A stretch of DNA of 64,000 nucleotides, from positions 145,753,379 to 145,817,378 of the forward strand of contig CP136063.1 of assembly GCA_032622095.1 (NCBI GenBank), given 5' to 3'. The notes under the pieces were generated by a model. That model worked only from the letters and a program-made list of their open reading frames with translations. It was not told the origin of the DNA and ran no database searches. The translations under genes and the position numbers were made by a program. This DNA is from Siphonodentalium dalli. Lineage: Eukaryota > Mollusca > Scaphopoda > Gadilida > Siphonodentaliidae. Within the stretch, counting starts at the first letter, position 1; the number at the start of each line of letters is the position of its first letter. Shown one piece after another: positions 26,901 through 41,900 of this stretch.

Positions 26901-29900
26901 TAATTTTATAACTGATTGGAAGAATTCATTCAGTAAGTAAATGGTTAATCAGCTAAGTATGCAGTAAAAAGAACTTACGCTGAGCAAATTCTCTGTTAAG
27001 ATGAGTTCTTGCAAGCACTCACAGCTAAAAAAAAAAAGGAATCATACAATTTTTTATAATATATTGCCACAGTTAGTTATTTAGTAAATAAATGTAAACA
27101 CATGATCGATATGATATGGTTGAGTGAAAGAAAGAGATAAATTGTCCTTCATTACCAATATTTCTAACCCATCCTCAGTGATAATGTTTGATCATGGGGT
27201 AAGTTGTGCCAATGCTGAAGGCAGATATAAATTAGACGAAGATTAGATATATAAAGAATAATAGTGAATTTTCGACATCATTGGATTAGCAGCATTACTT
27301 CTTCAGTGGTCACTAGTTCAGATTTTGTCATGGCCTCCATTAATGGTTTATTATCTGTAACATATTTTCATGTATAAGCAGAGATTAAACATAGTTATAT
27401 GTACTTACTTCCCAACTGAAGACGGCAAATGAATAAGTCGATTCTGATCAATCTTCAGTATACCCAATTTCCTAAGTTGACCTGAAATATATAGTCGATA
27501 ACTGTTGAGATGATGAAGAAGAATTTTCACTTAGCATAAAGACGGCTACATTTAACCCTTCCATGACTGGAGCTTCCTGAAATTTTGCGAAAACCCTGTG
27601 CCAATGCATTCTCTTATATTTGCGAGTCTCCCATAGGGAGCCTTGCATATATAAGAGAATACATTGGCCTAACAATGTTCAACTGGAGCTGGTAAGCCAG
27701 TACATTCTCTGATATATACGAGGCTCCTTATGGGAGATTCGCATATATAAGAGAATGCACTGGCACATGATCTTTAATGCGCCGCTCCCGTCATGAAAGG
27801 GTTAATCTTTTCAACGCTAGCACCCTGAATATTAGACTTCTCAGAGTTCCTGACATAATCACCTATTATGCTGTTGCCACAAACAATAAAATCAACATTT
27901 ACAATTGTTCATGAAAGACATTGGTACATTATCAAGCCTGTATAGCTGTAATTGCTATTTGGGCTGTTTGGGTAAGTTTGGGTAAGTATAAGTAGATCGT
28001 AATTGATATGGCCGTTTTTTGGACTTATTATCTGAACAATTCCATAGGGAACTATTAGTCAATGAGTGTTTATTAAAGAAAGGGTTAATATCTAGATGCG
28101 TCAATTTTCAAAACAGACTATTACCTATGCCATCTGGAAGCACTTCAAGGTTGTTTTGTGACAAGCAGAGGTCAGTTAAACTTATTAGGCCTCCAATCTC
28201 ATCTGGTAGCAATTCTATTAAGTTTTCAGAAACATCAATCTGTGAAAGTTTCTTCAACCTGCCAATTTCCTGAAATAGAGTGGACATTGCAGTAAGCTAT
28301 AGAGTGAGTATACAGTATACAGTATACAGTAATGCCCAAAGTAATTGACCACTTAACCACAGCAGAATTATGGGTAATTTTTCAGGATTTAGTCGGAAAT
28401 ATGGCTTGTTGCCAAGAGCTTTCCGATGAATGGCAACAAGCCATATTTCCGACTAAATCCTGAAAAATTACCCATAATTCTGCTGTGGTTAAGTGGTCAA
28501 TTACTTTGGGCATTACTGAAGATCATTATGTGATTATATTCCACCGGTTCAAAACATGGGAGCTTTTTGATGTTCTGACCTGTTCTGATGGGGAACTTTA
28601 TAGTATTGAACAAAAAAACACATGGAATAGATTTCTTTGTAAGTACTTGTTCCATGATAATCTACTCCACAAAAGGGGTTAGTCCGAGCTCGATTTTGAC
28701 TTCTGTGAGTTGATATCACAATAAACATTTAATTGATTACCTGGGAGAAATTCTATGATTGTATATGAAAATATTAAAAAGTTCCCAGGTTTTTGAACTG
28801 GTGGGAGTAGAGATTTGTGAATTGATCTATAGTGAGTCGGAAATTCTCTCACAGAAAAATAGCAATGAACTGTATCACAGCCAGGGTTCGCGCTGCTGCT
28901 TGCCAATGGCAAAAAAAATTTCATTTGGCAAGTGAGTTCTGTGAATGTTTCATTGAGGGCGTTGTACGTACTTTGTAACATGATCTCAATGTAGATACCG
29001 CAAAAGGTAATTATCAATTTGTTGTGACAGTTAATCCTCCCTTTGTCCGTTTGGATTATGGACGCATGGTGACATTATATAGCACATATTTATGATATCA
29101 GCATATTACCAGCGAGTGTAAGACAATAGGTTTATCAGCCGATTATGAATGGCGACGGATCCATTTATGGCTCGTTGATTTCAGCAGTAATACAAGGCTA
29201 AATAATATGTATGCTTGATGATGTAGCAATATTAAATGTAGTTTCCAGACAGGTGTCGCTTAAGATATTTATTGCTACCTTGATATTAATTAATAATTCT
29301 ATCTTGCTTTACTAGTAGATAATTTTACCTGTGTCTGTGGTTAGTTTTTAACAAAGATAAAAACACGATAATTTACCCAATTATACGCGCAATTAAATTT
29401 GGCAAATATTTTTTTAGTTTGGCAAAAAATAATTTCATTTGGCAAATATTTTGGCAAGAGAAAATGTTAGTCCAGCGCCAACCCTGATCACAGCTACTAG
29501 TAAGTGACAAGCAATCTATCAAATTCCACCATTAGTATGACATATGGTTCATATTTTTTCAAATTGTAAAAAAAGCACAACCGAGAATAAATAATAATGC
29601 TCAAAACTGAAACACGCAAGGCATGACCCCAGATTATAAACATCGGCACCTAATTAGAGTGAGATCTGATAAGATGATCAGATATATCTGAATGGATGAG
29701 ACTCATAAGTTAAGGCCATACACACAAAATAGTTCGTTTCTCAAGGATCGCCGCGTCCCAAAAATCCATGCGCCTCCCACATATTTATTGGCAGCTGTAA
29801 ATAATAAATATATAAATAACCGCATTCCCAAATCCCCCCAGAAGGAAGACCTTGTCTTGATACTTTTCATACGCAAACGGCAAATCTGACCGGATTTACC

Positions 29901-38900: not shown

Positions 38901-41900
38901 CGCATTTCACTCGACCCTTCATTAGCCTGTTTGAATTTGACGTGAATATTGGAGAATTTCGAGTTTTGCCATATATCGATGGCAGGCTGTGTTCATCTGC
39001 ATGTAGTACGTATTACGCTATATAGCGTCGCCACTAGTGAACCCTTTGCTCTGAAACTTAAGAAATCGTACCAGAGTTGAGCGTTGGTACCCCCTATCAC
39101 ACCCGCTCATCAGCAAAATTGTATCTCCGTGTTTTATATTTTGAAGTATTTTTCAACTTTTGGTTTTTGTTGGAATTTGACGATTTGAACGCACCTGGAG
39201 ACGAGCTCTCCGTTGGTCAGGTTGCTTAGTATAGCGGTCAAACTTTCGGATATTACCTGAAGTATATCGACGTACCTGCTCCTGAATTAGCTCGCTCCTT
39301 CATTAACCCGGTCGGATTTGGCGAGAAAAATAGGTTAGTGATACAGCACTTAAGAAAACTTATTTACATTATAAAGCCTCGCCACGAGTAAACCTTCGAC
39401 CTTAGTGTCAATTAAGCAGACATCAATAAGTTGCACTTGGATACTATCTGTCATATCCACTACTCAGAAATTTGTTATCTCGATGTTTCATTTTTTAGAC
39501 AATTTCCCCCCTTTAATTTTTGTTGGAATTTGCAAAAAGTCTGAACCCACCCGAAGCTCGCTCGCTGTTGGGCAGGTTGCTGTTATAGTAGAGCTATCAA
39601 ACTTCGGGGGCCTACCTGTGAGATACCAGCATACCCGCTCCTGCATTAACTTTGCTCATCCATTAGCCCATTGGAATTGGCGCCAAAAATAGGTCGTTTT
39701 ATTGTCCATGCTGCAGATCGGTAACGGTTGGGACAAGAAATTGATAAATGGTATATTACGGTCCGAACCACTCTTCCCATCTGGAGCGCGCAATACAAAT
39801 ATTATTCCGCTGGACTTTTTTGTTTGTTTTTTGTTTTTTGCTAAAGCGGACGTTTACATCTGCCACCGTCAGCCTGGTCTCACCACCCCGACATGGTATC
39901 ACCACCCGGCATGGTCTCGTCGTCTCCCCGGTATGGTCTCACCCTCTCCCATGCTCCTTCATTAGCCAAATTATTTAATTTTTGATGGTCTGTAACTTGT
40001 ACATTTCTCAACCGATTTACAAAATTCTTTCAGGAGGATCATTAGTACGTCCTATAGATACATGGTAGTAAAAATGGTTGAAATCATCGCAAAAAAACAA
40101 ATTGCAAAAATTTCGCCCCCACCCTAACCAAAAATTTAAGTCCGACCCTGTCCAAAATATTTTTGTGTAGTATATTGACAACGGCCAGCACTACCATAAA
40201 AACTAAATCCAGTTATCTTTCTTGCTATGTGAGAACAGGCGATCAGAAAGATTTCGAGGTTGACATATATATGGGAGATAACTCTGGAGAGGAAAGACGG
40301 ACAAAGTTTTTGATGTGCTTACGATTTAGTGGATATCAAGATGTATCTATCGACCAAATTTCAGTGCTGTACTCCTTATATTTTCGGAGTTCTGAAAAGG
40401 GAGATAACTCTGCAAATCAAGTGAGGACATGATTCTCAATAGGCATAAGCACTAGAGTTTGTATACATATATATACATACAAAGTTTTAGCTTTCTAACT
40501 CTTGTATTGACTGAGCTATGCTCATTATAAAATTGCTAAGAAGGAGAATAATAATAGAGAAAAATAAAAATCACAAAAACAATATACTTCCATGTAAAAC
40601 ATGGAAGTATAATAACTGCCTCCCTCATCACTTTCAAAAATAAAATCCTTGAGAAACAAACTATTTTGTGTGTATGGCCTAATAAGTGTCAATGACACTG
40701 TAGCTCAACTTGGAAATGGAATCATGCCATATTATATATTACAGTTAGTGTTCAAACGATTAGTCGACAAATAATCATCGACGTTGGTTTGTCGGAAAAT
40801 CGACTCTAACTTCCACAGTCGACTAGTCGGAATACAGTTTATAATCTCATCAGCTGGCCTTGACAATGCATGGTTTCACTAAATGTGGGTCAGAAAAGCA
40901 GCAAAGATAGCTAGTCTATGTTCAAGAAGCTTTCCAAAGTCCGAACATATGTAATAATGTCGAGCTTGACATAGAACTACGCTGAAATTCGCCAATGCGA
41001 TAATTCAAGTTAACCACTACTCATTTTCAATACAAGAGCAGTAACTCTATATTTGACTTCTATATACTCCCTATACCGCGGACGCAAAAATTTGTAGTGC
41101 GCATTTATAACCAACACAGGTAAAGAGGGAGGGGCTTCCACAAAAGTGTTCGTCGATACTAACTGAGTCTAACTCTCCGCTTGCTACGTACGCCTTACGG
41201 AAGTTATGGCAACTTACAAAGTAGGCATATGTACGCATCATCGATTCATCGTATATATAATCATTATAATGTGTGTCACACAGTGTGTGTGTTTTCTTTT
41301 GTTATTTTTTATTTTGAGCTGACTCTGAGACTGTGTATCGTTTATTTTCTATACCCTGGCAGGGAAGTATTTATTTGATTTCATGATTAAACAGAAAATC
41401 CCTCAATTATTTATTCTCATTATCATCGTAGATTCGTAGGGAACTTATTTGCGATCGGTGGGTTTCTAGAGCACCGGTTCATTTGCAACAAAACCATGTG
41501 ACGTGTCACGTGATTCAATTCTCCGAACACAGTAGAGTGTAAATATTGTGATGATGGCACGGAATTTGTAATTTTCTTTCACATGTGTTTCATTAGTATA
41601 AGGTTGGTGATGTATTTGGCCAACTAGTCGACGTCGACTCGACTTTTGGGGTTCGACTAGTCGACTCCAGAATCCCAGAGTCGTTTGAACACTAATTACA
41701 GTCCATAGAGTGAAAGGGAACTTGGACAGTTTATCTGCTTAAGTAACTAGAGGTTAACCTGAAGATCCATAAACAGTTTGGGATGGCTGCTGGCGGCCAT
41801 GTTTTGTGAGGAATTTCAGAAAAAAATTGATGGCTCCAATCTAGAGGTCACCCCGAAGATCCATATGAAGTTTGGTGATGATCGGATGAGGGATGTGGTC

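What the first reader, a model, noticed from the sequence alone, without database searches (positions are those of the whole stretch)
29710..40682. Possible 11-kb DNA transposon carrying an unnamed DDE-like gene
36-bp inverted sequences (one mismatch) lie 11 kb apart with TAAG outside each. A decayed, intron-containing gene with DDK and TDGGPDH acidic motifs starts about 220 bp inside. If real, this would be a large cut-and-paste family that I cannot match to a known superfamily.
Basis: inference. Interest (0 to 1): 0.75.

Follow-up and report, generated by a model that had tools for sequence, protein, structure and literature searches.

The report
GGCC-ended TWA-inserting DNA transposon family
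The 11-kb stretch is a broken, insertion-ridden copy of a family of 4-5 kb "jumping genes" that was recently active throughout this genome and whose roughly 1,100-residue DDE-type transposase matches no family in the protein libraries searched, although it inserts at the same TWA sites as the known PIF/Harbinger transposons.

Summary
The inverted ends are real (29714-29748 / 40645-40679, one mismatch) and bound a DNA transposon, but the target duplication is 3-bp TAA, not TAAG. The same 2.2-Gb genome holds intact relatives: elements of 4,241-5,323 bp carrying a 1,100-1,150-aa protein, all starting GGCC and flanked by TWA. Of 28 distinct complete elements 27 have a 3-bp duplication, 25 of them TWA. 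Empty sites with a single TWA exist for five insertions, two of them gene-carrying. Copies on different chromosomes are up to 99.9% identical, so the family moved recently. The window copy is 11 kb only because at least three other repeats inserted into it; its gene is a pseudogene. The protein has invariant D, D and E (D-105-D-43-E) and cysteine pairs. Twelve divergent members gave no Pfam match, and profile comparison found no relation to the genome's own PIF/Harbinger, DUF6589/Academ-like or integrase proteins. It inserts like PIF/Harbinger but is not one by sequence. Repbase/Dfam comparison and fold prediction were not possible, so "new superfamily" is possible but not shown.

The parts
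29714..40679 (+). Outer transposon copy (decayed, with nested inserts), ends GGCC...GGCC
29711..29713 (.). Left 3-bp target-site duplication, TAA
40680..40682 (.). Right 3-bp target-site duplication, TAA
29714..29748 (+). Left terminal inverted repeat GGCCATACACACAAAATAGTTCGTTTCTCAAGGAT
   Evidence: genome-wide copies
40645..40679 (-). Right terminal inverted repeat (one mismatch)
29973..30620 (+). Exon 1 remnant of the transposase gene (N-terminal part, 49% identical to L069 exon 1)
31101..33536 (+). Exon 2 remnant of the transposase gene with the DDE core and cysteine tail; frame changes near 31281 and 32262-32301, in-frame stops e.g. at 32083 and 32415
32101..32106 (+). Codons for the two Asp of MDDKH (first catalytic Asp, D596/D597 in L070 numbering)
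32421..32423 (+). Codon for Asp of TDGGPDH (second catalytic Asp, D703 in L070)
32553..32555 (+). Codon for Glu of NPPER (catalytic Glu, E747 in L070)
33803..34757 (.). Nested 955-bp repeat unrelated to the element; many copies at 96-99% with the same ends
36007..37363 (.). Nested 1,357-bp non-autonomous relative (L071-type ends GGCCAA.., duplication TTA at 36004-36006 and 37364-37366); an empty site exists elsewhere at 95%
37959..40614 (.). Nested 2.65-kb repeat; copies elsewhere stop at 40613-40616, before the right end of the outer element

Best explanation
A degenerate copy of a cut-and-paste DNA transposon. The element is 4-5 kb, ends in about 35-bp inverted repeats beginning GGCC, and encodes one 1,100-1,150-aa transposase. 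The C-terminal half of the protein carries an RNase H-like DDE core (D597, D703, E747 in L070) followed by cysteine pairs that are probably zinc-binding. Inferred mechanism: the transposase binds the inverted repeats and subterminal DNA, cuts the element out, and joins its ends across a 3-bp staggered cut at TWA, giving TWA|GGCC...GGCC|TWA. Short internally deleted copies move in trans. Shown here: ends, duplications, empty sites, the gene-to-end association across lineages, purifying selection and recent copies. Inferred: the fold, catalysis, excision (cut-and-paste rather than copy-out) and trans-mobilisation.
For: Four gene-carrying elements with both ends and a 3-bp TWA duplication: L069 5,039 bp, L070 4,241 bp, L071 4,681 bp, and a C4 copy of a lineage only 32% identical in protein to L070, 5,323 bp, where the predicted GGCC and TWA were then found. 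27 of 28 elements have a 3-bp duplication; the two non-TWA cases (TAG, ATA) fix the length at 3 bp rather than 1. Five empty sites at 95-99.5% identity with one TWA. Gene copies up to 99.9% identical on different chromosomes. Synonymous sites saturated (pS 0.81-0.86) while pN is 0.20-0.36 between lineages. D597, D703 and E747 invariant in 12 divergent members. Short elements are internal deletions of the L069 type.
Against: No sequence match to any solved transposase. The Chou-Fasman pattern fits an RNase H-like core only weakly. No excision footprint or expression was examined. No empty site was found for the window copy itself.
Confidence: 0.9

Rival explanations
1. It is a divergent PIF/Harbinger element: same TWA duplication, G-starting ends, similar length.
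For: TWA duplication, TIR under 60 bp starting with A or G, and autonomous length about 4.1 kb are features listed for PIF/Harbinger (PMC4482050).
Against: No DDE_Tnp_4 match in 12 divergent members, while the genome's own Harbinger protein L079 matches at E 1.7e-52. Profile comparison with those proteins gives probability 0.2-1.2%. One long ORF instead of transposase plus Myb/SANT ORF.
Confidence: 0.08
2. It is a member of the Academ superfamily (AcademX makes 3-4-bp duplications).
For: AcademX is stated to give 3 or 4 bp duplications (PMC10045372); Academ elements average about 5.6 kb in bivalves (PMC10294476).
Against: No XPG nuclease or helicase in the ORFs; the genome has only 7 XPG_I matches and none coincides with a gene hit. 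The genome's DUF6589 proteins, one of them next to a RecQ-type fragment and so a likely AcademH, are unrelated by profile.
Confidence: 0.12
3. The GGCC/TWA elements are moved by another transposase (for example the genome's Harbinger) and the 1,100-aa gene is cargo.
For: Harbinger genes are abundant here and use TWA elsewhere.
Against: The gene stays with GGCC/TWA ends in four lineages whose TIR sequences have diverged and whose proteins are 32-69% identical; it is the only long ORF and is under purifying selection.
Confidence: 0.04
4. The 11-kb outer structure is a chance pairing of two unrelated ends; only the left part is a transposon.
For: About 7 kb between gene and right end is not homologous to L069; this is a decayed copy without a known empty site.
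Against: The right 69-73 bp is 90% identical to the L069 right end. The neighbouring 2.65-kb repeat stops before it in all other copies, so it is a separate insert. TAA flanks both ends.
Confidence: 0.05

Closest known systems
PIF/Harbinger (PHIS group)
   Same: 3-bp TWA duplication; short TIRs starting with G; 4-5 kb autonomous copies; many short non-autonomous derivatives
   Different: Transposase unrelated at sequence and profile level; about 1,100 aa instead of about 400; no second Myb/SANT ORF; C-terminal cysteine pairs
Academ superfamily (AcademX / AcademH)
   Same: AcademX has 3-4-bp duplications; several-kb elements
   Different: No XPG nuclease, no helicase; no relation to the DUF6589 protein that sits beside a RecQ-type fragment in this genome.
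Retroviral-integrase-like DDE enzymes (IS3/IS481/Ginger/Gypsy integrase)
   Same: Motif style around the 2nd D and the E (TDGGPDH ... RTAP..SW.NPPER...N) resembles (S/T)DxGxxF ... NGxxER.N (from general knowledge)
   Different: D-E spacing 43 instead of about 35; no rve match in Pfam; profile probability 0.1% against Gypsy-type integrases of this genome; 3-bp TWA target
Zator (3-bp duplication)
   Same: 3-bp duplication
   Different: No match to the ISAzo13-type Pfam model in any of 12 members; not compared with Repbase Zator directly

Membership tests
TIR DNA transposon (cut-and-paste type) | Terminal inverted repeats on both ends of full-length copies | tested here: met
TIR DNA transposon (cut-and-paste type) | Constant-length target-site duplication, with empty sites holding one copy | tested here: met
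   27/28 elements 3 bp; five empty sites
TIR DNA transposon (cut-and-paste type) | DDE/D RNase H-fold transposase | tested here: inconclusive
   Invariant D597, D703, E747; fold not predicted; weak secondary-structure support
PIF/Harbinger | TWA 3-bp duplication | tested here: met
   25 of 27 duplications are TWA
PIF/Harbinger | DDE_Tnp_4-type transposase homologous to IS5/PIF | tested here: not met
   No Pfam match in 12 members; profile comparison 0.2-1.2%
PIF/Harbinger | Second ORF with Myb/SANT domain (most autonomous copies) | tested here: not met
   L070 and L071 hold a single long ORF on the coding strand
Academ | XPG nuclease (AcademX) or helicase (AcademH) in the element | tested here: not met
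Academ | Transposase homologous to Academ transposases | tested here: inconclusive
   No relation to DUF6589/RecQ-linked proteins; Repbase Academ sequences not available
Zator | Transposase of the ISAzo13-like Pfam family | tested here: not met
   No such Pfam match in 12 members at E<=1
Any superfamily held in Repbase or Dfam | PSI-BLAST convergence with its transposases | not testable with these tools
   No Repbase or Dfam copy and no eukaryotic protein database here

The most novel reading that the evidence does not exclude
An undescribed superfamily of eukaryotic DDE transposons, unrelated to PIF/Harbinger, that independently uses a 3-bp TWA target and GGCC ends. Non-autonomous elements now filed as Harbinger/Tourist by their TWA duplication would then partly belong to it.
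Probability: 0.35. Interest if true: 0.65.

Novelty: new variant of a known kind. Interest (0 to 1): 0.5.

Why it matters
TWA duplications are used as a diagnostic sign of PIF/Harbinger, especially for short non-autonomous elements without a gene. A second, sequence-unrelated transposase with the same target would make that sign unsafe and would be a case of convergence in target choice. The family has near-identical intact copies and paralogous empty sites in one genome, so its mechanism is open to direct test. Pfam has no model for the protein, so annotation pipelines that rely on it may call these copies host genes of unknown function.

Tried and rejected
TAAG as duplication: rejected, no 4-bp duplication in any complete element. 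The alternative reading of a 1-bp duplication with ends AGGCC: rejected by the TAG and ATA cases. Relatives in prokaryote genomes and viral contigs by back-translated patterns: none confirmed. PDB sequence and profile searches: only chance-level hits. Myb/SANT, helicase, XPG as accessory genes: not found. Literature for a described superfamily with these traits: nothing found in the open library; the AcademH paper, Yuan & Wessler 2011 and Bao 2009 are not held. The first scan for ends in L072 found no TIR, because that copy's left end is lost; a sister copy on C4 resolved it. Empty site of the window copy: none.

Full report
Observation. The inverted repeat is there (29713-29748 and 40645-40680, 35 of 36 complementary), and about 5e-11 such pairs would be expected by chance in the window. 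The window lies in a 2.2-Gb genome of nine long contigs. The 61-bp left end has at least 40 scored matches from 246 candidates there, which is a lower bound.

Boundaries and duplication. I collected 28 distinct complete elements (a 29th pair, L041, is left out because its left end is not GGCC). 27 have an identical 3-bp duplication: 15 TAA, 10 TTA, one TAG, one ATA. None has a 4-bp duplication. TWA|GGCC...GGCC|TWA could in principle also be read as a 1-bp duplication with ends AGGCC, but the TAG and ATA cases exclude that.

Empty sites. Joined flanks with one duplication were searched in the genome. Five empty sites were fetched and aligned: for L069 (98.2%), L070 (99.5%), L066 (99.5%), L004 (95.5%) and the element nested in the window (95.2%). 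Each holds a single TWA at the junction. The flanks of the outer window copy gave no empty site.

The gene. The C-terminal piece of the window gene (32418-32951) matches at least 143 places, many in open frames of 860-1,156 aa. Full elements were fetched or resolved: L069 5,039 bp with one intron, L070 4,241 bp with a 1,104-aa ORF, L071 4,681 bp with a 1,127-aa ORF. As a test of the rule, the most divergent lineage then in hand (L072, 32% protein identity to L070) was examined. A sister copy on C4 has TTA|GGCCGTAATTAATTAATC...GGCC|TTA and is 5,323 bp long. So GGCC ends and the TWA target follow the protein across lineages, although the rest of the inverted repeat diverges.

Activity and constraint. 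Copies within a lineage are 97.9-99.9% identical on different chromosomes. Between lineages synonymous differences are saturated (pS 0.81-0.86) while non-synonymous ones are 0.20-0.36. The 1.1-1.6-kb copies that carry most of the ends share much of the first 750 bp and last 400 bp of the L069 element. They are internally deleted, presumably trans-mobilised, derivatives (inference).

The protein. In 12 divergent members (A5) D596/D597, D703 and E747 (L070 numbering) are invariant, with 105 residues between the two Asp and 43 between Asp and Glu, followed by cysteine pairs. The motifs DDK(H/A), TDGGPDH and NPPERxMSxxN, with predicted strands before both Asp residues, fit an RNase H-like DDE core; this is inference, because no fold could be computed. 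Pfam gives no match better than chance for any of the 12, PDB sequence searches give none, and no prokaryotic or viral relative was confirmed.

Membership. PIF/Harbinger shares the TWA duplication and G-starting ends (PMC4482050). It needs a PIF/IS5-type transposase, which is absent here; the genome's own Harbinger protein L079 matches DDE_Tnp_4 at E 1.7e-52, and profile comparison with such proteins gives 0.2-1.2% probability. These profiles are shallow, so this lowers but does not exclude very remote kinship. Academ: AcademX gives 3-4-bp duplications (PMC10045372), but no XPG or helicase accompanies this gene, and the genome's DUF6589 proteins, one of which lies beside a RecQ-type fragment, are unrelated. 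Gypsy-type integrase profiles also do not match. I therefore describe it as working like a TWA-targeting cut-and-paste transposon, and do not file it under any named superfamily.

Why the window copy is 11 kb. Left 3.8 kb and right 69 bp are homologous to L069. Between them lie a 955-bp repeat (33803-34757), a 1,357-bp non-autonomous relative with L071-type ends (36007-37363, duplication TTA), and a 2.65-kb repeat (37959-40614) whose other copies end at 40613-40616, just before the outer right end. The gene remnant has at least two frame changes and in-frame stops.

Limits. No Repbase, Dfam or eukaryotic protein database and no structure prediction were available for this protein. The open literature library returned no description of such a group, but the key classification papers are not held in it. 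The species was not identified.

Noticed in passing
window 36007-37363: Second, nested transposon of the same group (different TIR, GGCCAACAAAAAAAAGGG) inside the first; TSD TTA, empty site elsewhere at 95%.
   Followed up: yes
window 51030-52887: Pieces like the nested element (51030-51150, 52828-52887, reverse strand) flank a 9-copy 161-bp tandem array (51272-52719): perhaps a related element carrying a satellite array.
   Followed up: no
window 37959-40614: 2.65-kb repeat with inverted TTATACTTCCATG-like ends; its right part occurs elsewhere in arrays with about 1.4-kb (C4, C2) or 1.2-1.3-kb (C9) spacing: a repeat that also forms satellite-like arrays.
   Followed up: partly
window 33803-34757: 955-bp high-copy repeat with fixed ends, copies 96-99% identical; family not identified.
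   Followed up: no
window 54881-54951 and 59407-59477: Identical doubled 35-bp units 4.5 kb apart; part of the unit (AATGACACTGTAGCT) also lies just outside the right end at about 40690.
   Followed up: no
L081 (G000:C1, around 11615481-11616824): DUF6589 protein (Pfam PF20231, unknown function) lies convergent to a RecQ zinc-binding-type fragment, which suggests DUF6589 is the AcademH transposase domain.
   Followed up: partly
window 33620-33734: G+C-rich 22-bp tandem repeat (CACCGCGGCCGAACGGCAAGTA) with an inverted copy at 33566-33596.
   Followed up: no
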